From the NCBI GenBank assembly GCA_018266765.1, contig JAFDZU010000064.1:13037-77036 (forward strand): a DNA stretch of 64,000 nt, written 5' to 3'. The notes below the pieces were generated by a model. The model worked only from the letters and a program-made list of their open reading frames with translations, had not been told where the DNA came from and made no database searches. This DNA is from Bacteroidota bacterium. GTDB taxonomy: Bacteria > Bacteroidota > Ignavibacteria > Kapaibacteriales > UBA961. Positions 42,990-60,350 of this stretch are shown here, piece after piece. A program made the translations under genes and the position numbers. The first letter of the stretch is position 1. Each line of letters begins with the position of its first letter.

Positions 42990-43772
42990 ATGAAAAAAGC
43001 TATTCTTCTTATAGTTGCTTTGATGTTCGTTTGCACGATTTCCAAAGCTCAAACTACTGCAATTCAAATTAACGGGTTAGATTGCAATGGTGTATCTCAT
43101 GATTTGTTTGCAGATTTAGATGCAGGCAAAGTGGCTATATTACATTTCTTTATGCCAAATTGTGGATCATGTCCGCCACCGGCTCAAAAAATTCAAACAA
43201 TGGCGAATCATATTTTAGCCACACATCCTGGAATGATAACCGGGTATGCTATGCCCTTCCAAAATTCAACTACATGTATCTATACTTCAGATTGGGTTTC
43301 TTCAAACGGACTGTTGCTGTATGCACCGTATGATAAAGGAGCTGCACAAGTGGCTTATTATGGTGGTTTTGGTATGCCAACTGTCGTCTTGCTCGGTGGA
43401 AAAGATCATAAAATATTATTCTCAACTCTAAGTTTTTCTACAAGTGATACAACTATTATGCGTGATAAAATATTAGAGATACTTGGAACTACTAAAGTAG
43501 AAGAATTGCCGAATTCGGTTAATTCTTTTAGTATTTCTCCAAATCCTGCAACTGACAATGCTACTATCAACATAGAATTGAAAGAAAAGTCACAGTTGAA
43601 ATTAGATATTACCGATATTTCCGGTAAACAAGTAGCAGTTATTATTGATGGAATTCTGTTTGGTATTATAACAAATCAATTTAACACTCAATCATTGCCA
43701 ACCGGTAATTATTTAGTTCGGTTACAAGTAAATGGAAAAACTTTCTCTAAAGAACTTAGTATCATACATTAA
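42990..43772 (+). CDS. Secreted thioredoxin-like protein with T9SS sorting domain
   Basis: 260 residues. The signal peptide is MKKAILLIVALMFVCTISKA. A thioredoxin fold follows with FFMPNCGSCPPPAQKIQ, the CGSC redox site being near residue 65, and a cis-Pro region YYGGFGMPTVVLLGG. The C-terminal ~75 residues are a T9SS domain (FSISPNPATDNATINIEL, then LPTGNYLVRLQVNG). Thioredoxin-like TlpA/Sco proteins often manage copper or disulfides outside the cytoplasm; here the protein should be surface-exposed. Its stop overlaps the next start (TAATGATG), so translation is coupled. Confidence 0.85.
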   Translation: MKKAILLIVALMFVCTISKAQTTAIQINGLDCNGVSHDLFADLDAGKVAILHFFMPNCGSCPPPAQKIQTMANHILATHPGMITGYAMPFQNSTTCIYTSDWVSSNGLLLYAPYDKGAAQVAYYGGFGMPTVVLLGGKDHKILFSTLSFSTSDTTIMRDKILEILGTTKVEELPNSVNSFSISPNPATDNATINIELKEKSQLKLDITDISGKQVAVIIDGILFGIITNQFNTQSLPTGNYLVRLQVNGKTFSKELSIIH

Positions 43773-44473
43773 TGATGAAAATCCTTAGCAAAATATTTGT
43801 AATAGCAATAGTCGTATTAAATGCGGCTGTTGCTGTTTCATTTGCCCAAAATTATACGATTAGTCCTAATGATACGGTTAAATTAGTCGGCATGATGGAA
43901 GATGTAGAAACACTTTCAATCCAACAAGTCAATATTTCGCAAAAAACTTTAACGTTGAAATGGAAAAAAATTAGCGAAAGTGTTCCTGAAAAATGGGAGG
44001 CATCAGTTTGTGATAATTCTTTTTGTAATACCTCATTGGTCGATAGTGGAATGATGAATCCTGTCTTCCCAACAGAATACGGGTTATTACTTTTACATAT
44101 TACACCACATGTGAATTATGGAACTGCAATAGTTAGATATGCCATTTGGGATGCCGCAATTCCTTCAAAAATAGATACATTAACCTATATTCTTTCGGCA
44201 ATTGAACCATCAGGTATCTATGAAAATCGAAATAGTAACACCGTAAGTCTCTTTCCTAATCCGGCAAACAGTAATATCAGCATCAAAACAGAATATGACA
44301 GAGGATTTACATTTTCCATTACAAATATATTAGGTGAGGTGATTGAATCCGGAATATCAAAAGAAAATTACCTGCAAGTCTTGGTAGGAAATTATCCTAA
44401 CGGTGAATATCATTTATGTATACATAACGGAAAAAATTTCTTACTCACCACTAAAATTATAGTCCAACATTAA
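43772..44473 (+). CDS. Secreted T9SS-sorted protein of unknown function
   Basis: 233 residues starting MMKILSKIFVIAIVVLNAAV, with cleavage near VSFAQ. The central part (KTLTLKWKKISESVPEKWEA, SVCDNSFCNTSLVDSG, YAIWDAAIPSKIDTL) looks like a single Ig-like domain with a Cys pair. The tail is a sorting domain (VSLFPNPANSNISIKTEY, then YPNGEYHLCIHNG). It overlaps the thioredoxin-like gene and is 12 bases from the multicopper oxidase, so it belongs to that operon. The CDNSFCN motif could bind metal; that is speculation. Confidence 0.8.
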   Translation: MMKILSKIFVIAIVVLNAAVAVSFAQNYTISPNDTVKLVGMMEDVETLSIQQVNISQKTLTLKWKKISESVPEKWEASVCDNSFCNTSLVDSGMMNPVFPTEYGLLLLHITPHVNYGTAIVRYAIWDAAIPSKIDTLTYILSAIEPSGIYENRNSNTVSLFPNPANSNISIKTEYDRGFTFSITNILGEVIESGISKENYLQVLVGNYPNGEYHLCIHNGKNFLLTTKIIVQH

Positions 44474-44485
44474 ATAGGAGGAACA

Positions 44486-46201
44486 ATGAAATATATCATT
44501 ATCATAATACTTGCGTGTTTTACAGTTGTGATAACAAGTGCACAAAATCCCCTTGTGGTTCCCCCGGCACTTACAGGAACAACATTCAACCTTAAAATAC
44601 AAAATGGAACAACCCAGTTTTATCCGGGTATAAATACCCCAACGTATGGAATCAATGGAGCTTTGCTTGCGCCGACACTAATTGTAAATAAGTGGGATTG
44701 GGTAACCATGAATGTTTCTAATACGTTAACAGGATTTGGGAATTCAACCACAATTCATTGGCATGGTTTGCATTTACCTGCCGCAGATGATGGGGGACCA
44801 CATCAAGTAATTGCACAAGAAGGAACATGGAGTCCACGATTTCAGATATTGAATAATGCAGGCACATTTTGGTATCATCCTCATGGTGATGGAAAGACTG
44901 ATTTACATGTCTCGAAGGGTTTGGCAGGAATGATAATAATAAAAGACTCTACTGAAGCTGCTTTGATGCTTCCACGAACGTATGGAGTTGATGATTTTCC
45001 AATTATTGTCCAGACAAAATCTTTTGATATTTTAAATCAAATTGCAATTGCAACAGAAGCAGACACAGCATTGTGTGTGAATGGAACTATGTCGCCTTAT
45101 CTTAATGCTCCTGCACAAATTATTCGACTTCGGTTATTGAACGGTTCTTCCATGAGAACATATAATTTTGGTTTTACCGGAAATAAAACATTTAAAATGA
45201 TTGCCGGAGATGCAGGACTGTTAGACAAACCAATAACTCTTACAAGAATACGATTAAGCCCCGGAGAAAGAGCTGAAATTTTATTGGATTTAACAGGTTT
45301 AAACGGACAAACAATCAACCTCTATAGTTTTAGTTCTGAATTACCAAATGGAATTTATGGAGCTAAAACTGTAAGAAGCATGATGGGAGGAACAATCCCA
45401 GAATACAGTGATAATCCTTTGAATGGAAAAGACTTCTCAGTTCTACAAATTAACGTAGTAGACCAAACTTCCAATCCGATAACAGATTTTCCAAATACTC
45501 TAACAGTAAATAATCCGTGGAAAAATTATTCTGTTTCAAGAAATTTTGTTCTCCAACCTGATTCTATGATGAGTGGATTAGGAATGGTAGCAGGACCATT
45601 TAATATTAATGGCGCTCATTTCGATATGAACAGAATTAATGTTACGACCTATCTCAATACAACTGAAAAGTGGAGAATTACCAATAATACAGGGATTGCT
45701 CATCCTTTTCACAAACATGACATACACTTTTATCTGCTCAATATTAATGGTGGAGCAGTACCCGATTATGAAAAAGGGAAAAAAGATGTTGTGTTGGTAA
45801 TGCCTATGCAATATGTTGAATTTATTACTAAATTCGAGGATTTTGCCGATGAGTCAATTCCGTATATGTACCACTGTCACTTGTTGCATCATGAAGATGA
45901 CGGAATGATGGGAAGTTTTAGAGTGATTGATACTACTTCTACAAGCGTTGAAGAGCAAAGCCAGAGTAACATTTCAATATTCCCTAATCCTGTATCACTT
46001 ACTTTGAATATTAAACTTCAAGGTGATGACATCGCGGGAGAAATCAAAGTGTTGAATTTACTTGGAACAATAATTCTTTCAAAGAATATCAATAACAACT
46101 CTTCTGCAACCGTTGATGTATCTGGCTTGAGTGGTGGTGTGTATGTGGCTCAGATTCAATCAGGTAATAAAACAATTACTAAAAAATTTATTAAACAATG
46201 A
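44486..46201 (+). CDS. Multicopper oxidase with T9SS sorting domain
   Basis: 571 residues with signal MKYIIIIILACFTVVITSAQ and an AGGAGG site upstream. The copper ligand clusters are intact: TIHWHGLHLPAADDGG (His 91 and 93), TFWYHPHGDG (His 131 and 133), GIAHPFHKHDIHF and MYHCHLLHHEDDGMMG, the last with the type 1 Cys and axial Met. These fit a CueO/SufI-like laccase-type enzyme that oxidises Cu(I) or phenolic substrates with O2. The last ~75 residues are a sorting domain (ISIFPNPVSLTLNIKLQG, then SGGVYVAQIQSG). A T9SS-exported oxidase would act at the cell surface, not in the periplasm like CueO. It overlaps the next gene by four bases. Confidence 0.92.
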   Translation: MKYIIIIILACFTVVITSAQNPLVVPPALTGTTFNLKIQNGTTQFYPGINTPTYGINGALLAPTLIVNKWDWVTMNVSNTLTGFGNSTTIHWHGLHLPAADDGGPHQVIAQEGTWSPRFQILNNAGTFWYHPHGDGKTDLHVSKGLAGMIIIKDSTEAALMLPRTYGVDDFPIIVQTKSFDILNQIAIATEADTALCVNGTMSPYLNAPAQIIRLRLLNGSSMRTYNFGFTGNKTFKMIAGDAGLLDKPITLTRIRLSPGERAEILLDLTGLNGQTINLYSFSSELPNGIYGAKTVRSMMGGTIPEYSDNPLNGKDFSVLQINVVDQTSNPITDFPNTLTVNNPWKNYSVSRNFVLQPDSMMSGLGMVAGPFNINGAHFDMNRINVTTYLNTTEKWRITNNTGIAHPFHKHDIHFYLLNINGGAVPDYEKGKKDVVLVMPMQYVEFITKFEDFADESIPYMYHCHLLHHEDDGMMGSFRVIDTTSTSVEEQSQSNISIFPNPVSLTLNIKLQGDDIAGEIKVLNLLGTIILSKNINNNSSATVDVSGLSGGVYVAQIQSGNKTITKKFIKQ

Positions 46202-47657
46202 GAAAATTAATTGTAATAATGTTATTAAGTGTAAGCGTTTCGGCATTTGCACAAGGTTCAATTTCTTGGGAAGCAGGAATGAATATCTCCAACAATTCCT
46301 TTAGCAATATGCACCCAAGAGTGAGCATAGATGGCTCCGGCAATCCGATGGTTATTTGGGGAAGAATGTCGGATCAATCCGTTTTCTTTTCTAAGTTGAA
46401 TGGCACTTCGTTTACCGCTCCAGTAAAGTTGAATCCGCCGTCGCTGACGGTGGCAACAGCAAGTTGGATGGGTCCCGATATTGCTTCCAAAGGTGATACA
46501 GTTTATGTGGTGGTAAAGCAAACACCGAAGCATCAGATACTTGTCATATTTATTTACTTCGTTCTTTCAATGGTGGTAATACATTTTCAAAACCTATTCG
46601 AGTAGATTTTATTGCTGATAGTATTTCACGATTCCCCACGGTTACAGTTGATGAATCGGGAAATCCAATTGTAGCTTTTATGAAATTTAATCCTTCATTT
46701 TTGCAATCGAGATGGGTTGTAGCGAAATCCACAGATTACGGAAATACATTTTCAGTTGATGTAAAGGCAAGCGGATATAGTGGAGCAAAAGCTGAAGTTT
46801 GCGATTGTTGTCCGGGTGCCATTGTTTCTTCGGGAAGTACATCAACAGTGCTCTACCGTGATAACTTGGCTAATATCCGTGATATATGGATTGGTGTTTC
46901 AAACGACAAAAGCAACTCCTTCAAAAATGGATATACAGTTGATAATAACAAATGGTTAATAAATTCTTGTCCCTCAAGCGGACCGGATGGTGTAATAGTT
47001 GGCGATACTCTTTATAGTGTATTTATGAGCAGCGGAAGCGGAAGTTATAGAACATATTTAAGTAAATTTTCCATGAGTTCCGGTATACTGAACAAGGTTT
47101 CAAACCTAACGGGAACAATAACCGGTTTAAGTCAGCAGAATTATCCTCGAGTCGCAAGCGAAGGCAAAGCAATGGCTATAGTTTGGAAGCAGAATGTGAA
47201 TGGAGTATCACAACTCCCAATACTTTTTACAAATAATATAGCAGATGGTTTTCCAACAACGTATGACATGGTTGACTTGAACGACATCACCAATGCAGAC
47301 GTTGCTATCTCTAAAGGGAAAGTGTTTGTTGTGTGGGAAGATGATAATTCAGGAACTATAAAATTCCGTTCGGGAACGTTCTCTACTGCTTCAAACTCGG
47401 TAAATGAAATTGAACAAAAAAGTTTTTCAATTTATCCAAGTCCGACTTCAGATTTTCTTACAATTCAGATTGATGAATCTGTAATGGCAAACTCAAAACT
47501 GAAAATTACCAACGAGTTAGGTGAAACTATTTTGACTTCAAATATCAGTAAGGGTATTCCTCTAAAATTAAATGTTGCAAGTTTTGATAAGGGTGTTTAT
47601 TTCATTCAAATACTATCAAATAATAAAAATTACAGTCATAAATTTATTAAACAATAA
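46198..47657 (+). pseudogene. Secreted Asp-box-like protein with T9SS tail, interrupted by a frameshift
   Basis: The 5' part (46198 to about 46530) encodes signal MRKLIVIMLLSVSVSAFAQG and a body ending TVYVVVKQTP. The reading then continues in another frame as ASDTCHIYLLRSFNGGNTFS, running smoothly into the downstream part (ATG at 46680 is internal) and to the stop at 47657. A single-base loss near 46520-46532 explains it. The body has SKSTDYGNTF-like units and a CDCCPGAIVS motif near the centre that could bind metal. The tail is T9SS-like (FSIYPSPTSDFLTIQI, then DKGVYFIQIL). It overlaps the oxidase stop. It is either a recent pseudogene or a sequence error. Confidence 0.75.
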
Positions 47658-47667
47658 CGGAGTTTTT

Positions 47668-48537
47668 ATGAAAACAATGATACTCATTGTGATAATTGCA
47701 GTAATGTCGCTTGGGGCGGCATCTCTGCAACAGGATATGCCCCATAAATTGCTAAGTTTCGGAGCACCTGTTTCAAGTACGGGAGCACCCGATGAACGAA
47801 CATGTGCAACAAGTGGTTGTCATGATACATACGCACCAAATATTGGTCGTGGTTCTATGAATATTTCAATTGATGGGGCTGAAAATGGGTTTGAAGCCGG
47901 AAAGACCTATGATATTACTATTCAAGTTGCAGATAAAGACACAAAGCGATTCGGATATCAACTTGTTGCTTTGAATGATGATGATAAAACCAATGCGGGT
48001 GAATTAAAAATTATTGACAATGACCGAACACAAATAGTAACAAACGATTTAAAATTCAAAGATCGCAAATATGCAACATATACACTGGCCGGTACCGAAC
48101 CATTTTCGGATGGCTTGGGCTATTGGAAGGTAAAATGGACGGCTCCGACTTCTCAAAAGAACATTACATTTTATGCTGCAACGGTTATTGCAAATAACGA
48201 CGACACAGATTATGGCGATTATGTTTTGACAAGCTCCCTACAACTTTCGCCTAAATCTCCTAGTATTATATCAGAACAACAGGTTCAGCCAGGGTGGATT
48301 TCATTGCCTGTCATTGTAGGTAATAGTTTGAATTGCAGAATTACTCTCAACAAACCTGACGAAATTTCTCTCGAACTTTATGATATATCAGGTAAAGTAG
48401 TTCCACTTGGCAAGCGGCATTATGGAGCGGGTTCTTCAGTAGGAGAATATAAGCTCTCCGGATTTACTGCAGGTGCTTATTTTGTTAGAGCATATTCTTC
48501 AGTTGGAGTTTTTTCACACACTGTATTTATTCAATAG
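47668..48537 (+). CDS. Secreted choice-of-anchor V-type protein with CX4CH motif (first paralogue)
   Basis: 289 residues from the ATG at 47668; the frame extends upstream but overlaps the previous gene's end. Signal: MKTMILIVIIAVMSLGAA. The mature N-terminus has SSTGAPDERTCATSGCHDT: TGAP-x-E-x-TCA-x-SGCH is the hallmark of the choice-of-anchor V/Reeler-like family, and C-x4-C-H could attach a c-type heme. Residues about 60-190 form the Reeler-like sandwich (GKTYDITIQVADKDTKRFGY). The C-terminus is a sorting-domain-like strand set. It is 10 bases before a paralogue. Confidence 0.8.
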   Translation: MKTMILIVIIAVMSLGAASLQQDMPHKLLSFGAPVSSTGAPDERTCATSGCHDTYAPNIGRGSMNISIDGAENGFEAGKTYDITIQVADKDTKRFGYQLVALNDDDKTNAGELKIIDNDRTQIVTNDLKFKDRKYATYTLAGTEPFSDGLGYWKVKWTAPTSQKNITFYAATVIANNDDTDYGDYVLTSSLQLSPKSPSIISEQQVQPGWISLPVIVGNSLNCRITLNKPDEISLELYDISGKVVPLGKRHYGAGSSVGEYKLSGFTAGAYFVRAYSSVGVFSHTVFIQ

Positions 48538-48546
48538 GAGCACAAA

Positions 48547-49425
48547 ATGTTACAAAAAACAATATTAATAGTCTTCGGATTGGCAATGGTTTTACTAATT
48601 ACTGCAGGTAAAAATAATGGTAATACAATCCTTAAGTCTTCCGGCTCTCACATCTCGAGCACTGGTGCGCCGGGTGAACAGACTTGTGCTAAATCAGGTT
48701 GCCATATTGATGCCCAAATAGACCAAGATGATAATAAAGTTGTTACAAAGCTTATATTAGGCGATAATGAAAAAATCTATACTCCTGCTCAAAAATATAC
48801 GATGAAGCTCCATGCCATTAAGGCAGGTGTAGGAAGATTTGGATTTCAAATAGTAGCACTTGACACTAATAACCGATCAAGCGGAGCTTTTTCAGTCCCG
48901 CAGAATTACAACCGTGTACAGTTACAAAACGGAACTATCAATGGTTCAAATAGAAATTATGTAACACACACGACTGCCGGTAACAAACCCGATGTAGTAG
49001 GTGAAGTTGAATGGAATTTTGTTTGGACTGCTCCGCAATCCTATAAAGGTAAGGTTACGTTTTATTATTGTGTGAATGCAACAAATATGGATAATACTAA
49101 TACCGGAGACCACTTATTTGTTGCTTCTGAGTCTTATACTACATCAGCAACAAAGGTTTCGGAAAATGAGGATTTTGCTTCTACATTTCGTGTATATCCA
49201 ACAGTAGCAAATGATTACTTAACCGTGGAGAATGAATCGGGATTTGCAAAAGATACGAAATATGAAATTGTTTCGAGTTCAGGATTGATTCTACAAAAAA
49301 ATCGTATTGAAAGCAGTGGTAATAGTGTAGTTATTCCCCTTGAACTATTGCCAAACGGTTATTATATAGTGCGTATAACCACAGCAGGAATCGCTATTGT
49401 TAAAAACTTTGTGGTATTACGATAA
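48547..49425 (+). CDS. Secreted choice-of-anchor V-type protein with CX4CH motif (second paralogue)
   Basis: 292 residues. Signal: MLQKTILIVFGLAMVLLITA. The same block appears as SSTGAPGEQTCAKSGCHID, then TPAQKYTMKLHAIKAGVGRFG and a sorting-like C-terminus (FRVYPTVANDYLTVENE, then LPNGYYIVRITTAG). It is a tandem paralogue of the gene before it. If the CX4CH binds heme, the pair could pass electrons at the cell surface, for instance with the nearby oxidase; that is inference. It ends 42 bases before the C-half of CusA. Confidence 0.8.
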   Translation: MLQKTILIVFGLAMVLLITAGKNNGNTILKSSGSHISSTGAPGEQTCAKSGCHIDAQIDQDDNKVVTKLILGDNEKIYTPAQKYTMKLHAIKAGVGRFGFQIVALDTNNRSSGAFSVPQNYNRVQLQNGTINGSNRNYVTHTTAGNKPDVVGEVEWNFVWTAPQSYKGKVTFYYCVNATNMDNTNTGDHLFVASESYTTSATKVSENEDFASTFRVYPTVANDYLTVENESGFAKDTKYEIVSSSGLILQKNRIESSGNSVVIPLELLPNGYYIVRITTAGIAIVKNFVVLR

Positions 49426-49466: not shown

Positions 49467-51383
49467 ATGAGTAAAAAAAAAACGATGAATAAAAAACAAC
49501 GAATAGAAATTATTGAAAAATCCTCTAAACAGGTAGGAGCAGGAGTGTTTTACTCGACTATTGTAGTAATCACTTCTTTCTTACCTGTATTTTTACTCAC
49601 CGGTATCGAAGGTAAACTCTTTCATCCTTTGGCTTGGACTAAGACCTTTATATTGATAATAGATGCGTTCTTTGCAATCTCACTGGCACCTGTTCTGATT
49701 TCGTTCCTGATGAAAGGAAAGTTGAAACCTGAAAGTGCAAATCCAATTACCCGTATCTTAGAAAAAATATATTCTCCTTTAATTACTTGGTGTATGAATT
49801 GGCGAAAAACAGTTCTTACTTTTAATCTAATTGCTCTCATCATTGGTGGTATAATGGTGGTTCGCATGGGGTCTGAGTTCATGCCGCCCTTAGATGAAGG
49901 TTCTATTCTTTTTATGCCCGTTACACTTCCTGATGTTTCTAATTCGGAAATTAAAAGAATCCTTCAAGTGCAAGATAAAATCATTAAGTCTGTTCCCGAA
50001 GTAATGAATGTATTAGGCAAAGCAGGAAGAGCAAATACTGCAACTGATAATTCACCGATAAGTATGATTGAAACTATTGTCTTATTAAAACCAAAAGCTG
50101 AGTGGCGTAGCGGTATGTCAAAAGATGATATTATAAATGAACTGAACAGTAAACTTCAAATCCCCGGTGTTGTAAACGGATTCACACAGCCAATTATTAA
50201 CCGGATAAATATGCTTTCAACCGGAATAAGAACAGATGTTGGATTGAAAATTTACGGTCAAAATCTTGATTCTATCTACTCACTCGCTGTACGAATGAAA
50301 AAAGAGCTTGAAGGCATCAGCGGCATTAAAGATTTATATGTAGAGCCAATAACAGGTGGAAGATATATTGATATAACAGTTAAAAAAGATGAAATTGGAA
50401 AATACGGTTTAAGTGTAGATGATGTAAACATGTACGTAGAAACAGCACTCGGAGGAATGAATCTTACCACAACAATCGAAGGAAGAGAACGCTTTACTGT
50501 CAATGCACGGTTTGCGCAAGATTATAGAAACAGTTTGGAAGCAATAAATCAAGTTCCTATTAAAACTATGAACTATGGAGTAATTCCTCTTTCCGTTGTA
50601 GCTGATGTTTCTGTTTCTGAAGGCCCTCCAATGATAAACTCTGAGAATGCAATGTTGCGTGGAACAGTTCTTTTTAATGTTCGAGACCGAGACCTTGGAA
50701 GCACTGTAAAAGAAGCACAAGACAAGTTAGATGCGATGTTCTCTAAACTACCGAAGGGCTATAACTTAGAGTGGAGCGGTCAGTGGGAGAATCAAATTAG
50801 AGCCAATAAAACGTTAAGTATTATTATGCCAATCGTGCTTTTAATAATTTTCATGGTTTTATATTTTACGTACAAATCGTTAAAAGAAGCATTACTCACC
50901 ATGATAACTGTTCCATTTGCTTTAATAGGAGGGGTTTATATGGTTTATTTCTATGGTGTTAATTTATCGGTCGCGGTAGCGGTAGGATTTATTGCACTCT
51001 TTGGGATTGCTATCGAAACAGCAATGTTAATGACTATATATCTGAACGAATATATGGAAAAATTAGTAGCAGATAAGGGCAATTCATCAGAAACTATAAC
51101 CAAAGCCGATTTACGTAAATATACGATTGATGGTGCAGTTCAACGTTTGAGACCCAAGTTAATGACGGTTTCTGTTTCACTTTTTGGATTAATTCCTATT
51201 CTTTGGGCAAGAGGAACAGGAAGCGATGTTATGTTACCAATTACTATTCCGTTAATCGGAGGAGTATTAACTTCTACAATTTACGTACTATTGGTAACAC
51301 CGATTGTCTATGAAATGGCGAAAGAAAGAGAACTGAAAAAACATGGTAAAATTACAATAGCGGGAAGTCATGAAGCACTGTAA
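49467..51383 (+). CDS. CusA/CzcA-type heavy-metal RND pump, C-terminal half
   Basis: 638 residues. It starts in the cytoplasmic segment between TM4 and TM5 of a complete CusA: NKKQRIEIIEKSSKQVGAG, followed by TM5 (FYSTIVVITSFLPVFLLTG), EGKLFHPLAWTKTF and TM6. TM7 (NLIALIIGGIMVV) and the second periplasmic porter domain follow (GSEFMPPLDEGSILFMPVTL, GIRTDVGLKIYGQNL), then TM8-TM12. The first TM segment and porter domain are absent here; they are encoded at 55290. With that half it totals 1060 residues, the usual full length. The next gene overlaps it by 14 bases. The ATG has only a weak ribosome site. Confidence 0.9.
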   Translation: MSKKKTMNKKQRIEIIEKSSKQVGAGVFYSTIVVITSFLPVFLLTGIEGKLFHPLAWTKTFILIIDAFFAISLAPVLISFLMKGKLKPESANPITRILEKIYSPLITWCMNWRKTVLTFNLIALIIGGIMVVRMGSEFMPPLDEGSILFMPVTLPDVSNSEIKRILQVQDKIIKSVPEVMNVLGKAGRANTATDNSPISMIETIVLLKPKAEWRSGMSKDDIINELNSKLQIPGVVNGFTQPIINRINMLSTGIRTDVGLKIYGQNLDSIYSLAVRMKKELEGISGIKDLYVEPITGGRYIDITVKKDEIGKYGLSVDDVNMYVETALGGMNLTTTIEGRERFTVNARFAQDYRNSLEAINQVPIKTMNYGVIPLSVVADVSVSEGPPMINSENAMLRGTVLFNVRDRDLGSTVKEAQDKLDAMFSKLPKGYNLEWSGQWENQIRANKTLSIIMPIVLLIIFMVLYFTYKSLKEALLTMITVPFALIGGVYMVYFYGVNLSVAVAVGFIALFGIAIETAMLMTIYLNEYMEKLVADKGNSSETITKADLRKYTIDGAVQRLRPKLMTVSVSLFGLIPILWARGTGSDVMLPITIPLIGGVLTSTIYVLLVTPIVYEMAKERELKKHGKITIAGSHEAL

Positions 51384-52596
51384 AACCATATTGTTGATAA
51401 TTTTCATTCTTTGCAGTAAGCAATTGTTTGCACAAGTGCTTACGTTGGATACAATTCTTAGTAGAATTGAACAAAACAATCCTATGCTTAAAATGTATGA
51501 TGAACAAATCACAGGAGTGCAAAATTACTCGCAAATGACAAAAAGCTGGATGCCACCGAAAATATCAGTCGGAAAATGGCAAACTCCTTATGAAAGTTTG
51601 AATGAAGGTATGTGGATGATTTCTGCCGAGCAAATGATTCCGAATCCTTCAAAACAGCAGGCAAATTATGATTATATGCAAGGAATGACCGACATCGAAT
51701 CTCAGAAAAAATTTGCAAAACGAAATGAGATGTTTGCAATCGCGAAACAAGTGTATTATAGTTGGATTGTACTTAAAAAGAAACATGAAGTACTTGTACA
51801 AACTGACTCTTTGTTGGATTATATTATTCAAGTTGCACAAATACGTTATACCTTCAATAAAGAAAAACTAACTACAATCTATAAAGCTCAAGCTGATTTA
51901 TTTGTCATTCGTAATATGGAAACGATGGTGCTTGGTGATATGAAAATGAAAAATATTGAGCTAAATACTCTGATGAATGCCGTAAGTTCTGCGGAGTTTG
52001 ATATTGATACTACAATTCAAATACACAATTATGAAGCTCAAGCCAATGATACAATGCTTATTTCTACTGTAAGAAGTGATATTAAGCAGTATGATGCGGG
52101 TATAAACACAGCAAAACTTCAACAAGAATTTGAAAGAACAAAACGTTTCCCTGAATTTGGTGTTTCGGTAACTCACATGCAATCAACAAGTTCTATGCCC
52201 AGTCAGTTTTCAGTTATGGGAATGATGAGTCTGCCTTTCGTTCCGTGGGCATCGAAAGATTACCAAGCAAATATTCAAGGATTGGATAATACTATTAATG
52301 CAATTAACTATCAAAAACAATCCGAAATTAATGAGATTGCCGGAGAAATTGCTTCGCTTCAAACACAGATTCGTTCAGTAAAACAGCAACTCAATGCGTA
52401 TAAAGAAAAGATTACACCTGCATTTTTCAACAGTTATCAGTCTTCATTGATAGGATATCAGCAAAATACCGAAGATTTATTTACTGTATTAGACGGTTTG
52501 AAGATGTATCGGATGGCGAAAACGGATGAACTGGATCAACTGCAAGCACTATTGTCATTGGAGGTTAGATATGAGAAAGAAATGGAAATACGGTAA
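51370..52596 (+). CDS. Outer-membrane factor, TolC/CusC family
   Basis: 408 residues. Signal: MKHCKTILLIIFILCSKQLF, cleavage near AQVLT. The helical barrel pattern of outer-membrane factors is clear: TLDTILSRIEQNNPMLKMYD at the start and a second helical repeat near 210-400 (YDAGINTAKLQQEFERTKR, LQTQIRSVKQQLNAYKEKI). It forms the exit duct of a tripartite metal pump with the CusA halves and the adaptors. It overlaps the pump gene upstream and the adaptor gene downstream, so all are translationally coupled. Confidence 0.88.
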   Translation: MKHCKTILLIIFILCSKQLFAQVLTLDTILSRIEQNNPMLKMYDEQITGVQNYSQMTKSWMPPKISVGKWQTPYESLNEGMWMISAEQMIPNPSKQQANYDYMQGMTDIESQKKFAKRNEMFAIAKQVYYSWIVLKKKHEVLVQTDSLLDYIIQVAQIRYTFNKEKLTTIYKAQADLFVIRNMETMVLGDMKMKNIELNTLMNAVSSAEFDIDTTIQIHNYEAQANDTMLISTVRSDIKQYDAGINTAKLQQEFERTKRFPEFGVSVTHMQSTSSMPSQFSVMGMMSLPFVPWASKDYQANIQGLDNTINAINYQKQSEINEIAGEIASLQTQIRSVKQQLNAYKEKITPAFFNSYQSSLIGYQQNTEDLFTVLDGLKMYRMAKTDELDQLQALLSLEVRYEKEMEIR

Positions 52597-53806
52597 TTTC
52601 ACTTTGCGGTCTATTATAAAGCAAATATTTTTGATTTGTTGTATTACTGTATTATTAGTTATACTTTCGTCATGCTCGGGAAGTGGAAAGAATACACAAT
52701 TTAACGCTTTAAAAAAAATAGATTTAGATGGTTTGGTGCAACCTACCAATCAAACTGTATTCAGTGCGGTAAGTACGATTACACCTACTCAACAATCAAT
52801 CACGCCGGTTATCAAAGCAACCGGAGAAATTGATTACGACCCTCGATTCCAAAATACAATGAGTGTGCGATTCAGCGGACGGATTGAAAAGCTCTATGTG
52901 AAGTATAATTTTGAAGATATATCCAAAGGTCAGCGCATCATGGATATTTATAGCCCTGAAATCGTAACTGAACAACAAAATTTACTGTTCTTATTGGCTA
53001 ATTCATCAGAAAACAGAGAGTTAGTTAATTCGACAAAACAAAAATTACGCCTTCTTGGACTGACTGATTCACAACTTGAGCAAATAGAATCTTCTCACAG
53101 TGCGATAAATCCATTACCTGTTTACAGCTCATTTACGGGGCATATTCATGATATTGGACTATCCGGTGGAGTTGCCTCGTCAGCAGCGATGAGAACCGGA
53201 ATGAATGCAGGAATGAATACTGCATCTGCATCAACCCAGAGTGAAAATTCAGCTTCTTCTCAATCTTCATCACTTTCTCTGAAAGAAGGAATGTATGTAA
53301 AAAGTGGTCAATCTCTTTTTGCAGTATATAGTATGAACCAAGTTTGGGCTGTTTTGAGTATCTCTCCGCAAGATGCTCGATTCGTAAAAATTGGGGATAA
53401 AGTTACTATCCAACCGGAAACAAACCTGATGAACACTATTGCTTCCACCGTTGGTTATATCGAACCTGTAATTGAAAAGAATTCTTTTAATGTCAAAGCA
53501 AGGGTTTATTTACAAAATGCCGAACACTTACATTTGAAAATAGGAACACTGTTGTCAGCAACAATAACTTCTAAAGAAATAAGCGGAATGTGGTTGCCAA
53601 GGAGTTCAGTTGTTACCATTGGACGCAATCAAATTGTTTTCCTTAAAACAGAAAATCATTTTAGTACCAAAACTATAAATACGGGATTTGAAACTGATTC
53701 TTTAATTCAAGTACTAAGCGGGTTGCAAGGAAATGAAATGATAGCCGGTAACGCACAATTTATGGTGGATAGTGAAAGTTTTATTCAAACAAATGAAAAT
53801 GAATAG
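52571..53806 (+). CDS. CusB-type membrane-fusion adaptor (first)
   Basis: 411 residues from the ATG at 52571, overlapping the TolC-like stop by 26 bases; an upstream ATG at 52526 reads through the previous gene. A lipobox (VILSSCSGSG) follows the hydrophobic stretch, so it is anchored by lipid. The adaptor body has IKATGEIDYDPRFQNTMSVR, SGRIEKLYVKYNFEDISKGQ and SMNQVWAVLSISPQDARFV. A Ser-, Gly- and Met-rich loop (MRTGMNAGMNTASAST) may bind copper. It lacks the heavy-metal-binding domain found in the next adaptor. It links the inner-membrane pump to the outer-membrane factor. Confidence 0.88.
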   Translation: MRKKWKYGNFTLRSIIKQIFLICCITVLLVILSSCSGSGKNTQFNALKKIDLDGLVQPTNQTVFSAVSTITPTQQSITPVIKATGEIDYDPRFQNTMSVRFSGRIEKLYVKYNFEDISKGQRIMDIYSPEIVTEQQNLLFLLANSSENRELVNSTKQKLRLLGLTDSQLEQIESSHSAINPLPVYSSFTGHIHDIGLSGGVASSAAMRTGMNAGMNTASASTQSENSASSQSSSLSLKEGMYVKSGQSLFAVYSMNQVWAVLSISPQDARFVKIGDKVTIQPETNLMNTIASTVGYIEPVIEKNSFNVKARVYLQNAEHLHLKIGTLLSATITSKEISGMWLPRSSVVTIGRNQIVFLKTENHFSTKTINTGFETDSLIQVLSGLQGNEMIAGNAQFMVDSESFIQTNENE

Positions 53807-55013
53807 AAATAGAACAAAACAAATACTTCTGATGCTGTGTGTAATTTTTTCAATTACATCTATCTCGTCGTGCGTTAGGGAAGAAACCAACCTGCCGGTA
53901 GTTGAACCCGAAGAGTATTATACTTGCTCTATGGATCCTCAAGTAATAGAAAGTAAACCCGGAAATTGCCCAATTTGTCACATGAAACTGATTAAAGTTA
54001 AAAAACACAATCTCATGCCCGGACAATTAAAACTCAGCGCACAGCAAATTAAGTTAGCTAATATTACATATGATACTCTGACTGTCGGCGAATTAGCGAA
54101 AGAAATTACTCTCAATGGAGTTGTTGCAGTTGACCAAACGCTAACAGAGGCGATTAGTGCAAAAGTTCAAGGAAGAATAGAAAAATTAGCTGTAAAGAAT
54201 GTTGGAGATTACATCACTAAAGGTCAATTACTCTACGAAATTTACAGTGAAGAATTAAACATCATCCAACAAGAGTATATCCTTTCATTGCAAAGGAATG
54301 CATCAATTGATGGTTTCCGTGAATCTGCAATAAACAAGATGCTGTTATATGGTATGAGCGAAGCTCAGATACTTCAAATTAAAACTTCAAAAGTGATACT
54401 TCAATCCGTTCCCGTTTATTCAACTGCCGAAGGTTTTGTGACCGAACTTTCAGTTTCGGAAGGCGGTTATGTAACCGAAGGTGCGACTCTGTTTCGTCTT
54501 GCTTCATTACAATCTCTTTGGATTGAATCTCAAATTTATCTATCGTATCTTAGATATATAAGCATTGGTTCATCGGCAACTATATCAATCGCAAGTGCAA
54601 GCGAAAAAACATTTTCGGGAAAGGTTGTGTTTATAAATCCCGAGATTCAATCACCTGAACGGTTTGTGCTTGCACGGTTTCAGATTCTCAATCCATCGGA
54701 AGTAATTAAACCAAGTATGTTAGCAAATATTACCATTAAAACTGAAAAGAAGAAAGGATTACTGCTGCCGGTAGAAGCTGTAATTCAGGACAGTAAAGGA
54801 GCAAGTGTTTGGGTGCGAAATAGCGATGGAATTTTTGAAAATAAAATGGTTACCGTCGGAATGCAGAATAGTCGTCAAGTCGAAATTATAGAAGGATTAG
54901 AGGAAGGTGATGTGGTAGTGGTTTCCGGAGTATATCTGTTAAATAGCGAATATATATTTAAAAAAGGTGCGAATCCTATGGAAGGGCACAATATGCCCGG
55001 AATGAAAATGTAA
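53793..55013 (+). CDS. CusB-type membrane-fusion adaptor (second) with N-terminal metal-binding domain
   Basis: About 406 residues; the start may be 53793 or 53799, both overlapping the previous stop. A lipobox is present (SISSC). Residues about 40-70 form a heavy-metal-binding domain: YYTCSMDPQVIESKPGNCPI, then CHMKLI. The adaptor core follows (ISAKVQGRIEKLAVKNVGDY, ASLQSLWIESQIYL). The C-terminus is Met/His-rich (MEGHNMPGMKM), typical of copper sites. Two different adaptors in one operon suggest a mixed hexamer or a role in loading metal to the pump. Confidence 0.88.
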   Translation: MKMNRNRTKQILLMLCVIFSITSISSCVREETNLPVVEPEEYYTCSMDPQVIESKPGNCPICHMKLIKVKKHNLMPGQLKLSAQQIKLANITYDTLTVGELAKEITLNGVVAVDQTLTEAISAKVQGRIEKLAVKNVGDYITKGQLLYEIYSEELNIIQQEYILSLQRNASIDGFRESAINKMLLYGMSEAQILQIKTSKVILQSVPVYSTAEGFVTELSVSEGGYVTEGATLFRLASLQSLWIESQIYLSYLRYISIGSSATISIASASEKTFSGKVVFINPEIQSPERFVLARFQILNPSEVIKPSMLANITIKTEKKKGLLLPVEAVIQDSKGASVWVRNSDGIFENKMVTVGMQNSRQVEIIEGLEEGDVVVVSGVYLLNSEYIFKKGANPMEGHNMPGMKM

Positions 55014-55043
55014 TATTGTTTTATTAATATTAATTGAATAACT

Positions 55044-55280
55044 ATGAAAAAAATAACAATCTTAGCAGTAGCAATGCTTCTGCTGTCTCTTGGTGCTTGC
55101 AATAAACCTGCACAAAATAAACAGGGAAATGAAGTCTCTCAAAATTTTAATCTTGATACAACATTATTGAAAAAAGGAGATACATTTTATCAATGTGAAA
55201 TGGATTTAGAAGTAATATCCGACAAACCGGGCAGTTGCCCAAAGTGTGAAATGGATTTAACTGAATTGAAAAAACATTAG
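55044..55280 (+). CDS. Small metal-binding lipoprotein (HMBD)
   Basis: 78 residues. Lipoprotein signal with LLLSLGAC, then a linker and a heavy-metal-binding domain: FYQCEMDLEVISDKPGSCPK, then CEMDLTELKKH. The domain carries the two Cys and Met ligands of the family. It probably passes copper to the adaptor or pump in the periplasm, much as CusF does although CusF has another fold. It lies between the second adaptor and the N-half of CusA with gaps of 30 and nine bases. Confidence 0.85.
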   Translation: MKKITILAVAMLLLSLGACNKPAQNKQGNEVSQNFNLDTTLLKKGDTFYQCEMDLEVISDKPGSCPKCEMDLTELKKH

Positions 55281-55289
55281 AATACTCAA

Positions 55290-56558
55290 ATGGTTGAACG
55301 ACTCATTTCATTTTCTCTGCGAAATCGCATTATTGTACTGCTCATCTCAGCATTTATGTTTGGGTGGGGAATCTACGAAGTTATGCATAATCCTGTGGAT
55401 GCAATTCCTGATCTTTCCGAAAATCAAGTAATTGTGTTTACTGAATGGATGGGAAGAAGTCCACAAATTATTGAAGACCAAATAACATATCCGCTTGTTT
55501 CTAATTTACAAGGAATTCCCAAAATTAAAAGTATTCGAGGTACTTCAATGTTTGGGATGAGTTTCGTATATATAATTTTTGAGGAGAATGTGGATATTTA
55601 TTGGGCCAGAACACGAGTAACCGAACGCCTTAGTTTTGCCCAGAAACTTCTTCCTGAAGGAATAATCCCAACGCTTGGCCCTGACGGAACAGGAGTCGGG
55701 CATATCTTTTGGTACACTCTCGATGCAAAAGGTTACGATCTTGGAGAGCAGCGTGCTTTGCAAGACTGGTATATCAAATTCGCATTGCAAACGGTAAAAG
55801 GCGTGAGTGAAGTTGCGTCTTTTGGAGGTTTTCAAAAGCAATATCAGATTGTAATTGACCCCATAAAATTAAATTATTACAACCTTTCGATGATGGACGT
55901 TCTCAAATCTGTTAAAGCAAATAATAATGATGTGGGTGGTCGTAAATTTGAAATGAGCGACAAATCGTATATTGTGCGTGGTTTGGGATATATAAAATCT
56001 ATTGAAGAGATTGAAAATATTTCACTGAGCACATCCAATAATGTACCGATACGAATAAAAGATGTAGGTGCTGTACAAATGGGTGGCGATATTCGTTACG
56101 GGATTTTCGATGAAAACGGTGAGGGTGAAAAAGTAGGTGGAATTGTGGTAATGCGATATAATGAAAACGCAGATGCTGTTATCAAAAGCGTAAAAGTAAA
56201 GATGGAAGAAGTAGAAAAAGGATTGCCCGAAGGTGTTAAATTTCATGTAGCGTACGACAGAAGCGAACTAATTGAAGAGGCAATCAGTTCAGTAAAAGGA
56301 ACATTGATCGAAGTGTTTATCAGTGTTTCAATTATCGTTTTGCTCTTTCTTTTTCATTGGAGAAGTGCGCTCATTATTCTTATCCAAATTCCGATTGCAG
56401 TTGCTTCAAGTTTTATCTTGCTTAATTTATTCGGTTTTTCATCCAATATCATGTCCTTAACGGGAATTGCGTTAGCAATTGGTGTTATTGTAGATGATGG
56501 AATTGTGATGGTAGAAAACTCCTACCGACATTTAAGTGAGTTTCAATCAGAGGAGTAA
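55290..56558 (+). CDS. CusA/CzcA-type heavy-metal RND pump, N-terminal half
   Basis: 422 residues. TM1 is RIIVLLISAFMFGWGIYEV. The first porter domain has NPVDAIPDLSENQVIVFTEW, YPLVSNLQGIPKIKSIRGTS and GTGVGHIFWYTL. TM2-TM3 follow (FHWRSALIILIQIPIAVASS), then TM4 with the acidic motif ALAIGVIVDDGIVMVENSYR, which carries the proton-relay Asp of this family. The frame then ends at HLSEFQSEE, exactly in the TM4-TM5 loop. The missing remainder is at 49467, upstream. A large unrelated gap separates it from the methyltransferase gene. It is a natural stop, not the window edge. Confidence 0.9.
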   Translation: MVERLISFSLRNRIIVLLISAFMFGWGIYEVMHNPVDAIPDLSENQVIVFTEWMGRSPQIIEDQITYPLVSNLQGIPKIKSIRGTSMFGMSFVYIIFEENVDIYWARTRVTERLSFAQKLLPEGIIPTLGPDGTGVGHIFWYTLDAKGYDLGEQRALQDWYIKFALQTVKGVSEVASFGGFQKQYQIVIDPIKLNYYNLSMMDVLKSVKANNNDVGGRKFEMSDKSYIVRGLGYIKSIEEIENISLSTSNNVPIRIKDVGAVQMGGDIRYGIFDENGEGEKVGGIVVMRYNENADAVIKSVKVKMEEVEKGLPEGVKFHVAYDRSELIEEAISSVKGTLIEVFISVSIIVLLFLFHWRSALIILIQIPIAVASSFILLNLFGFSSNIMSLTGIALAIGVIVDDGIVMVENSYRHLSEFQSEE

Positions 56559-57842: not shown

Positions 57843-60350
57843 ATGAAACATACATATCAAGTAAACGGAATGTCGTGTATGGGCTGTAAAGCCAGTGTAG
57901 AAGAAGCATTAAGGAGATTAAGTGAAGTTCAAAATGTAACAGTAGATTTACAGAAATCGGAAGCTGTTATTGAAATGAATTCCCATATTCCTATTGCTAA
58001 ATTGCAGGAAACATTATTAAAAGCCGGATTGCATTATACTATCGAAATGCAAGGTGTTGCTAAAGAAATTCCACATCATAAACACCATCAAAAGCATAGT
58101 AAAAGCAAAAAAGAGAATGAATCGGGTATCTATTATTGTCCTATGCATTGTGAGGGTGAAAAAACATATAATAAACCCGGAGATTGTCCTGTTTGTGGTA
58201 TGGATTTAATAGAGCAACCCAAGCAACATAATGCTCAACAATATACTTGCCCAATGCACCCTGAAATTATTAAAAATCAAAGCGGTTCTTGTCCAATTTG
58301 CGGGATGGATTTGGTTCCTTTACAGCCAAGTATAAGTTCAGAGCAAAAAGTGTATAATGACTTGACAAAAAAGATGATTATTGCTACATCTTTTGCTGTT
58401 CCTGTATTTATTATTGCTATGAGCGATTTAATTCCCGGAAAGCCATTGGCTCATCTTCTGAGTCAACAGAGTTGGAATTGGATACAATTACTATTAACAA
58501 TTCCGATAGTTTTTTATGCTTGTTGGGTGTTCTTTGTTCGAGCATGGAAATCAATTATTACGTGGAATCTCAATATGTTTACCTTAATTGGAATAGGTAC
58601 AAGTGTTGCTTTTCTATTTAGTATTATTGCCTTGCTTTTTCCAAATATATTTCCCTCTGAATTTAAAACAGAATCAGGAACAGTTCACCTTTATTTTGAA
58701 GCAACAGCAGTCATTCTAACATTAGTTTTATTGGGGCAACTGTTGGAAGCAAAAGCCCACAGTCAAACAAGTGGAGCTATAAAAGAATTAATGAAATTAG
58801 CACCAACCGAAGCTATATTAGTCAAGAATGGAGAAGATACAGTTATTTCTATTCATGATATAGTAGTTGGTGATTTATTAAGGGTGAAACCGGGAGGTAA
58901 AATTCCTGTTGATGGAAAAATTGCTGAGGGTGAAGGAAGTGTAGATGAATCAATGATTTCCGGTGAGCCTATTCCTGTGGATAAAATAAAAGGAGATAAG
59001 GTAAGTTCGGGAACAATTAACGGAACAAAATCATTTGTTATGATTGCCGAAAAAGTTGGTTCGGATACGTTGCTTTCTCAGATTATTCAAATGGTGAATG
59101 ATGCAAGTCGTTCAAGAGCTCCAATTCAAAAAATCGCAGATAAAATTGCTAAATATTTTGTACCGATTGTCGTATCAGTTTCAATTATAACGTTCGTATT
59201 GTGGGCAACTGTTGGTCCTGAACCCGCTTTAGTGTATGCTTTTGTAAATTCTATTGCAGTTTTAATTATAGCTTGTCCTTGTGCTCTTGGTTTGGCTACT
59301 CCGATGTCGGTAATGGTTGGGGTAGGAAAAGGTGCGCAATCGGGAGTATTGATTAAAAATGCAGAAGCACTTGAAATCATGGCTAAAGTAGATGTATTAA
59401 TAACTGACAAAACAGGTACAATTACGGAAGGAAAACCATCTGTTGAAAAAGTTTTTGCTCTTGTAGATAAAGAAACCGATAATTTAGTGCAAATAATTGC
59501 TTCACTCAACCAATATAGCGAACATCCATTAGCCACTGCTGTCGTTAAGTATGCCAATGAAAAAGGTACTAAATTAATTGAGGTGAAAGATTTTGAAGCA
59601 GTTGCCGGCAAAGGTGTTGTAGGCGATTTTCAAGGGAAACAAGTAGCTTTGGGAAATCTCAAATTAATGGATAAATTCAACGTTGTAATTCCTGAAGATT
59701 TGACAAGTAAGATAATTGCAGAACAGAAATTGGGAAAGACAGTTTCATACATTTCTGTAGATTCAAAAGCTGTCGGGTTTGTGGCTATTTCAGACGCAAT
59801 AAAAGAGAGTTCAAAAAGGGCAATTGCTGAATTAATAGCGAGTGGAGTTGAAGTGATTATGTTGACGGGAGATAATGCCAATACAGCAAGTGCGGTGGCG
59901 GCTGAATTAAATCTAACCGACTTTAAAGCAGAATGTTTACCGGAAGACAAATTAAAAATGATTAAGGAATTGCAGGCAAAAGGTAAGATTGTGGCTATGG
60001 CTGGTGACGGGATTAATGACTCACCTGCTTTGGCACAAGCGAATGTTGGAATTGCTATGGGAACAGGAACTGATGTTGCAATTGAAAGTGCCGAAATAAC
60101 ATTGATCAAAGGAGATTTACAAGGAATTGTAAAGGCAAAAAAATTGAGTCATGCAGTAATGAAAAATATAAAACAAAACTTATTTTTTGCATTCATTTAT
60201 AATACACTTGGAGTTCCAATTGCCGCAGGGGTTTTATTCCCTTTCTTTGGAATATTATTGTCTCCAATGATTGCGGCGACTGCAATGAGCTTTAGCTCGG
60301 TTTCAGTTATTGTGAATTCTTTAAGACTAAGGAAAATTACTTTACATTGA
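57843..60350 (+). CDS. copA: Copper-exporting P1B-type ATPase with HMA and two HMBD modules
   Basis: 835 residues. Residues 1-70 form an HMA domain with MSCMGCKAS. Two heavy-metal-binding domains follow at about 95-125 (YYCPMHCEGEKTYNKPGDCP) and 135-160 (YTCPMHPEIIKNQSGSCPIC). A His-rich linker (HHKHHQKHSKSKK) lies between the HMA and them. The ATPase core has the phosphatase TGES-like site MISGEPIP, the CPC metal site IIACPCALGLATP, the phosphorylation site DKTGTITEGKP, the HP motif SEHPLATAV and GDGINDSPALAQANVGI. These features fit a Cu(I) exporter. It is the last gene of the island. No CsoR/CueR-type regulator is adjacent. Confidence 0.96.
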   Translation: MKHTYQVNGMSCMGCKASVEEALRRLSEVQNVTVDLQKSEAVIEMNSHIPIAKLQETLLKAGLHYTIEMQGVAKEIPHHKHHQKHSKSKKENESGIYYCPMHCEGEKTYNKPGDCPVCGMDLIEQPKQHNAQQYTCPMHPEIIKNQSGSCPICGMDLVPLQPSISSEQKVYNDLTKKMIIATSFAVPVFIIAMSDLIPGKPLAHLLSQQSWNWIQLLLTIPIVFYACWVFFVRAWKSIITWNLNMFTLIGIGTSVAFLFSIIALLFPNIFPSEFKTESGTVHLYFEATAVILTLVLLGQLLEAKAHSQTSGAIKELMKLAPTEAILVKNGEDTVISIHDIVVGDLLRVKPGGKIPVDGKIAEGEGSVDESMISGEPIPVDKIKGDKVSSGTINGTKSFVMIAEKVGSDTLLSQIIQMVNDASRSRAPIQKIADKIAKYFVPIVVSVSIITFVLWATVGPEPALVYAFVNSIAVLIIACPCALGLATPMSVMVGVGKGAQSGVLIKNAEALEIMAKVDVLITDKTGTITEGKPSVEKVFALVDKETDNLVQIIASLNQYSEHPLATAVVKYANEKGTKLIEVKDFEAVAGKGVVGDFQGKQVALGNLKLMDKFNVVIPEDLTSKIIAEQKLGKTVSYISVDSKAVGFVAISDAIKESSKRAIAELIASGVEVIMLTGDNANTASAVAAELNLTDFKAECLPEDKLKMIKELQAKGKIVAMAGDGINDSPALAQANVGIAMGTGTDVAIESAEITLIKGDLQGIVKAKKLSHAVMKNIKQNLFFAFIYNTLGVPIAAGVLFPFFGILLSPMIAATAMSFSSVSVIVNSLRLRKITLH

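What the first reader, a model, noticed from the sequence alone, without database searches (positions are those of the whole stretch)
49467..56558. CusA-type RND pump split in the TM4-TM5 loop, with the halves in permuted order
The N-half (TM1-TM4, porter domain 1; 55290-56558) lies downstream of the C-half (TM5-TM12, porter domain 2; 49467-51383). Between them are the outer-membrane factor, two adaptors and a metal-binding lipoprotein. The N-half ends HLSEFQSEE and the C-half begins SKKKTMNKKQRIEIIEKSSK: joined in that order they form a continuous cytoplasmic loop with no evident missing or duplicated residues, 422 + 638 = 1060. Both have natural starts and stops, and the transporter motifs are intact. 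This looks like a circular permutation of a normal operon, perhaps through a circular or tandem-duplicated intermediate broken inside cusA. If functional, it would be a two-chain RND pump in which the TM4 proton relay and the second porter domain come from different genes.
Basis: partly seen in the sequence, partly recalled or inferred. Interest (0 to 1): 0.88.

Follow-up and report, generated by a model that had tools for sequence, protein, structure and literature searches.

The report
Conserved two-gene CusA-type copper pump
A copper-exporting membrane pump normally made as one protein chain is, in a widespread group of Bacteroidota, always encoded as two separate genes, and in this genome the two genes even sit at opposite ends of the operon, so the working pump must be put together from two chains.

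Summary
A CusA-type RND permease is encoded as a C-half (49467-51383, 638 aa) and an N-half (55290-56558, 422 aa) at the two ends of an OMF-adaptor-adaptor-lipoprotein operon. The break lies in the cytoplasmic TM4-TM5 loop. The split is neither an accident of this genome nor an assembly error. All 82 closest relatives examined are split at the same place and none is intact; intact pumps begin only at about 60% identity. In 23 further genomes the halves pair exactly 1:1 (28 N, 28 C). Both halves are under strong purifying selection (median dN/dS about 0.03). The Cu-binding methionines and the window's proton-relay residues are kept; the relay residues are divided between the two chains. In most relatives the halves are adjacent, N then C. 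The window's C...N order belongs to one nested clade. So the gene split first, in place; later the N gene, with its upstream lipoprotein gene, moved behind the adaptors. Best explanation: an ancient two-chain heavy-metal (Cu/Ag) RND pump, probably N3C3. RefSeq lists both halves as generic permease subunits; ten literature searches found no description of the split.

The parts
49467..51383 (+). C-half of the CusA-type RND permease (TM5-TM12, second porter domain), 638 aa; carries equivalents of M573 (M150), M623 (M200), M672 (M249), E939 (E517), K984 (K564)
51370..52596 (+). Outer-membrane factor (TolC/CusC-like, OEP), 408 aa; overlaps the C-half stop
52526..53806 (+). Periplasmic adaptor 1 (HlyD_D23, CusB/CzcB type); the true start may lie downstream of the listed one
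53772..55013 (+). Periplasmic adaptor 2 (CusB type with heavy-metal-binding domain)
55044..55280 (+). Small HMBD lipoprotein, 78 aa, 9 nt upstream of the N-half; the same L-N pair with about the same spacing occurs in the N-C relative L057
55290..56558 (+). N-half of the CusA-type RND permease (TM1-TM4, first porter domain), 422 aa; carries the D405 equivalent (D402)
44486..46201 (+). Multicopper oxidase (T9SS-tailed) upstream: copper context
57843..60350 (+). Cu-type P1B ATPase (CopA-like, HMA + 2 HMBD) downstream: copper context

Best explanation
The two genes encode the two chains of one heavy-metal (Cu(I)/Ag(I)) RND permease. An ancestral single-chain CusA-type gene of Bacteroidota was split once, in place, in the cytoplasmic loop between TM4 and TM5, giving adjacent genes N-C. 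Later, in one sub-lineage, the N gene (in the window with its upstream lipoprotein gene) moved behind the adaptor genes, giving C-OMF-B1-B2-L-N. Each chain starts and ends in the cytoplasm (4 and 8 TM helices). They are inferred to assemble in the membrane into a CusA-like protomer and then a trimer of heterodimers (N3C3), docking with the two adaptors and the OMF encoded between them. Protons pass through a relay made of D402 of the N chain and E517/K564 of the C chain. Cu(I) binds the three-methionine site of the C chain. Shown: the split, its conservation, selection on both halves, 1:1 pairing, single origin, later relocation, and conservation of key residues. Inferred: assembly, stoichiometry, transport activity and the metal.
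For: Every listed relative above about 60% N-half identity has an open frame of only about 425-475 aa, whereas relatives at or below 60% have frames over 1000 aa except a few split ones at 60% and frames cut by a contig end. Of 83 split loci including the window, 73 are N-C adjacent, 8 are C...N and 2 show only N on the contig; none is intact. 23 genomes give 28 C-halves for the 28 N-halves:1, as the nearest neighbours except for the permuted G140. dN/dS median 0.028 (N, 228 pairs) and 0.031 (C, 182 pairs), none above 0.06. N and C distances correlate at r=0.94 (75 loci; not corrected for shared ancestry). Rooted tree: split clade 100/100, permuted clade 100/100 and nested; the separate N and C trees agree. 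D405 equivalent 83/83, M573/M623/M672 in every sequence that covers them, E939 77/77, K984 70/76. Complete plasmids of Runella and Haliscomenobacter carry it as two genes. Roles of these residues: PMC8092243.
Against: There is no experimental evidence of expression or assembly. AlphaFold models of each half alone are poor (pLDDT 60 and 58) with shallow alignments, and complexes could not be modelled. Six split pumps carry V or F at the K984 position, so the relay is not uniform. Three of the six CusA transmembrane relay methionines are replaced in the window (M403->I, M486->L, M501->I, read).
Confidence: 0.86

Rival explanations
1. The halves are decaying fragments (a pseudogene pair) of a once intact pump.
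For: RND genes do break; annotation pipelines often treat half-length permeases as fragments.
Against: dN/dS about 0.03 on both halves, all metal-site residues kept, the same split in 83 loci and several families, strict 1:1 pairing.
Confidence: 0.02
2. The split arose by a circular permutation or tandem duplication that broke an intact cusA, and the adjacent N-C order is secondary.
For: The gene order is indeed a cyclic rotation of L-N-C-OMF-B1-B2.
Against: The permuted clade is nested within N-C lineages, and the deepest split branches (L167-L180) are all N-C. Seven of twelve intact relatives have cusA-OMF-adaptor order, which N-C-OMF-B keeps.
Confidence: 0.04
3. In N-C relatives the two genes are joined during translation (frameshift or readthrough) into one chain, so a two-chain pump exists only in the permuted clade, or is inactive there.
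For: Many N-C pairs overlap or lie close, e.g. a 4-base overlap in Runella.
Against: The spacing of the frames is not conserved (from overlap to more than 500 bp), so no fixed recoding signal fits. Joining is impossible in the permuted clade, which nevertheless keeps both halves conserved.
Confidence: 0.04
4. The halves are not one pump: each has its own role (for example, the C-half acts alone, or the N-half pairs with other RND proteins).
For: Each half has its own start and stop; the host genome has other RND permeases.
Against: 1:1 co-occurrence and proximity; each half lacks one porter domain and part of the relay; conserved residues are divided between chains.
Confidence: 0.04

Closest known systems
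CusA (E. coli) / CusA-CzcA HME-RND family (TIGR00914, 2.A.6.1)
   Same: Homology over the full length when the halves are read together; three-methionine Cu site; proton-relay Asp/Glu/Lys in the window; operon with OMF, CusB-type adaptor and metal-binding partners
   Different: Two genes instead of one, cut in the TM4-TM5 loop; in the window the halves are at opposite ends of the operon; neither half alone reaches the TIGR00914 cut-off (595.5 and 471.6 against 701.45 bits); some transmembrane relay methionines replaced
SecD/SecF (RND superfamily heterodimer, 2 x 6 TM; PMC8277102)
   Same: An RND fold made from two chains
   Different: SecD/SecF is cut between the two 6-TM repeats and serves protein export; here the cut gives 4 + 8 TM, inside the first repeat, and the system is a tripartite metal pump
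MdtBC (heterotrimeric RND; PMC8277102)
   Same: Mixed-subunit RND assembly
   Different: MdtB and MdtC are each full-length 12-TM chains; here the protomer itself is in two chains
'efflux RND transporter permease subunit' pairs in RefSeq, e.g. WP_013931264.1/WP_013931263.1 (Runella) and WP_013768959.1/WP_013768960.1 (Haliscomenobacter)
   Same: The same split system, already annotated as two genes
   Different: N-C adjacent, not permuted; annotated without any remark that the two are halves of one pump

Membership tests
CusA/CzcA HME-RND permease | Homology along the whole 12-TM RND profile | tested here: met
   N 1-427 and C 428-1043 of TIGR00914 (1051 positions); Pfam ACR_tran 2-416 + 414-1019, (jointly)
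CusA/CzcA HME-RND permease | Single full-length chain reaching the curated TIGR00914 cut-off (701.45 bits) | tested here: not met
   595.5 and 471.6 bits as separate chains; hence filed as a two-chain variant, not an ordinary member
CusA/CzcA HME-RND permease | Cu(I)-binding M573, M623, M672 (CusA numbering) | tested here: met
   Present in the window and in all split relatives covering the site
CusA/CzcA HME-RND permease | Proton relay D405, E939, K984 | tested here: met
   Window has D402 (N), E517 and K564 (C); K984 replaced by V/F in 6 of 76 relatives
CusA/CzcA HME-RND permease | Operon with OMF and CusB-type adaptor | tested here: met
CusA/CzcA HME-RND permease | Trimeric assembly and metal transport | not testable with these tools
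   needs biochemistry
SecD/SecF | Split between TM6 and TM7 into two 6-TM chains | tested here: not met
   Split falls in the TM4-TM5 loop (CusA about 423/428); split position of SecD/SecF from PMC8277102

The most novel reading that the evidence does not exclude
The split is functional in itself: the protomer is an obligate two-chain unit whose assembly is controlled or tuned (for example by gene position, translation order or exchange of N chains), so Bacteroidota use a structurally distinct, ancient N3C3 class of tripartite metal pump.
Probability: 0.15. Interest if true: 0.78.

Novelty: new variant of a known kind. Interest (0 to 1): 0.6.

Why it matters
Tripartite RND pumps are described as trimers of single 12-TM chains. 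Here a whole, old subfamily is obligately two-chain, with the proton relay and the substrate site supplied by different genes. The permuted operons are a natural control: N and C cannot be made as one chain there, yet both stay conserved. This gives a ready test system for in-trans assembly of RND transporters. It also shows that the TM4-TM5 loop is a permissive cut site, and it warns that annotation and resistance-gene catalogues which demand full-length CusA miss this group.

Tried and rejected
Misassembly or frameshift artefact: rejected, since independent assemblies and complete plasmids show the same split. Pseudogene: rejected by dN/dS. Break inside cusA by permutation: rejected by the rooted tree. 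Split intein or trans-splicing: no extra domain at either new end, both proteins are RND sequence from end to end. Shared repeat at the two junctions: none useful found; only a 6-base GAGTAA is common to both, not evidence. AlphaFold of each half: poor confidence; the Foldseek match of the C-half to CusA is driven by sequence and adds little. Ten literature searches gave no description of a split CusA; one Flavobacteriaceae copper paper (PMC11213822) lists RND subunits without mentioning a split. Only the best 80 of 408 genome-contig hits were examined one by one; one search widened the sample.

Full report
What is there. The window holds a + strand operon: C-half permease 49467-51383, OMF 51370-52596, adaptor 52526-53806, HMBD adaptor 53772-55013, HMBD lipoprotein 55044-55280, N-half permease 55290-56558. 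The two halves fill the TIGR00914 (CusA/CzcA) profile exactly once, 1-427 and 428-1043 of 1051. Against E. coli CusA the N-half ends near residue 423 and the C-half starts near 428. The cut is in the TM4-TM5 loop, which on the known RND topology is cytoplasmic; intact relatives vary in length and sequence there. Neighbours are a multicopper oxidase and a Cu-type P-ATPase, so copper is the likely substrate. The own genome has no intact pump of this subfamily; its other full-length CusA-like proteins are 36-40% identical to the N-half.

The split is conserved. A search of 149 related genomes found every N-half match above about 60% identity in an open frame of 425-436 aa (G002, G140, G077), and matches at 60% or below in frames over 1000 aa, apart from short frames that look like contig ends. 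A phylum-wide sample of 396 genomes gave the same sharp boundary: 22 genomes besides the window's own with 27 split copies in several families, and all other matches intact or cut by a contig end. Of the loci mapped one by one, 83 including the window are split (N tail ends about 10-25 residues after VEN[SA]Y; C starts shortly before the conserved ERL.IIE). Of these, 73 have N then C adjacent, 8 have C...N (window, L040, L049, L050, L051, L052, L054, L056), and 2 (L039, L053) have N on a contig without C; none is intact. In 23 genomes searched with the C-half, 28 C copies pair 1:1 with the 28 N copies; all are close neighbours except in the permuted G140. Complete plasmids of Runella slithyformis and Haliscomenobacter hydrossis carry the same system as two genes annotated 'efflux RND transporter permease subunit'.

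Both halves look functional. Pairwise dN/dS (Nei-Gojobori, pairs with 0.1<dS<1.2) has median 0.028 for N (228 pairs) and 0.031 for C (182 pairs), none above 0.06. Within the permuted clade dS is mostly saturated while dN stays below about 0.21, which agrees. The D405 equivalent is present in 83 of 83 N-halves. M573, M623, M672 and E939 are present in every C-half that covers them, and K984 in 70 of 76, with V or F in six (L041, L055, L057, L058, L065, L066). In CusA these residues form the Cu(I) site and the proton relay (PMC8092243). Here the relay Asp is on one chain and Glu/Lys on the other. Of the six CusA transmembrane methionines the window keeps M391, M410 and M1009 and replaces M403, M486 and M501 (read from the alignments).

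History. Separate trees of N and C and a careful tree of both together with intact pumps as outgroup give one split clade (100/100) and, inside it, one permuted clade (100/100). In the N tree, L039 and L053 were counted as permuted by inference. The deepest split branches (L167-L180) are all N-C. Intact relatives most often have cusA-OMF-adaptor order (7 of 12; several others have OMF-adaptor-cusA), which N-C-OMF-B-B keeps. So the gene split in place first. In the window the N-half is preceded, 9 nt upstream, by the HMBD lipoprotein gene, and the N-C relative L057 has the same lipoprotein at about the same spacing before N. In L051 a multicopper oxidase lies directly upstream of C, where Runella has oxidase-sialidase-N-C. 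The permuted order is thus a rotation of L-N past C-OMF-B1-B2. Tandem duplication followed by loss of opposite parts is the simplest route (inference; no intermediate seen). L040 and L056 lack the lipoprotein at that place, so whether L moved with N in the common ancestor is not settled.

Transfer. Most members of the window's own family in the sample lack the split pump, while other Bacteroidota records carry copies 85-88% identical to it in unrelated surroundings. Relatives sit on plasmids. Horizontal spread is the likely reason (inference; gene trees were not compared with a species tree).

Mechanism. Best reading: two chains of 4 and 8 TM helices, each starting and ending in the cytoplasm, assemble into one protomer and a trimer of heterodimers working with the encoded adaptors and OMF. 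Recoding cannot explain it: in the permuted clade the order forbids joining, and in N-C relatives the spacing of the frames varies from overlap to over 500 bp. Assembly, stoichiometry and transport were not tested; AlphaFold models of single halves were poor.

Comparison. The nearest known two-chain RND is SecD/SecF, 2 x 6 TM (PMC8277102), cut at a different place and with another function. MdtBC mixes full-length chains. Ten literature searches found no report of a split CusA; the library holds only open-licence papers, so absence there is weak evidence.

Noticed in passing
window 46198-47657: T9SS-tailed gene next to the multicopper oxidase, which weakly resembles the sialidase-family gene beside the Runella copy, reads as two ORFs in different frames (46198-46605 and 46680-47657), an apparent single frameshift; the Runella gene (RUNSL_RS28400) is one ORF. 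Real decay or a sequencing error.
   Followed up: partly
L041, L055, L057, L058, L065, L066 (C-half): The proton-relay lysine (CusA K984) is replaced by V or F in these split pumps although D405 and E939 are kept.
   Followed up: partly
L002 (own genome, G000:C32) and many relatives: A different CusA-like frame of 1440-1500 aa is common in Bacteroidota, suggesting a permease fused to an outer-membrane factor; the same family thus shows both fission and probable fusion.
   Followed up: no
window 42990-49425: A run of T9SS-tailed secreted proteins (two small ones, multicopper oxidase, sialidase-like, two similar Cys-containing proteins) lies directly upstream of the C-half on the same strand, possibly one copper-related secreted set.
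   Followed up: no
L048 / G002: The close relative's public title says Ignavibacteria while copies 85-88% identical sit in records titled Bacteroidetes or Chitinophaga, consistent with horizontal transfer or mislabelled MAGs.
   Followed up: no
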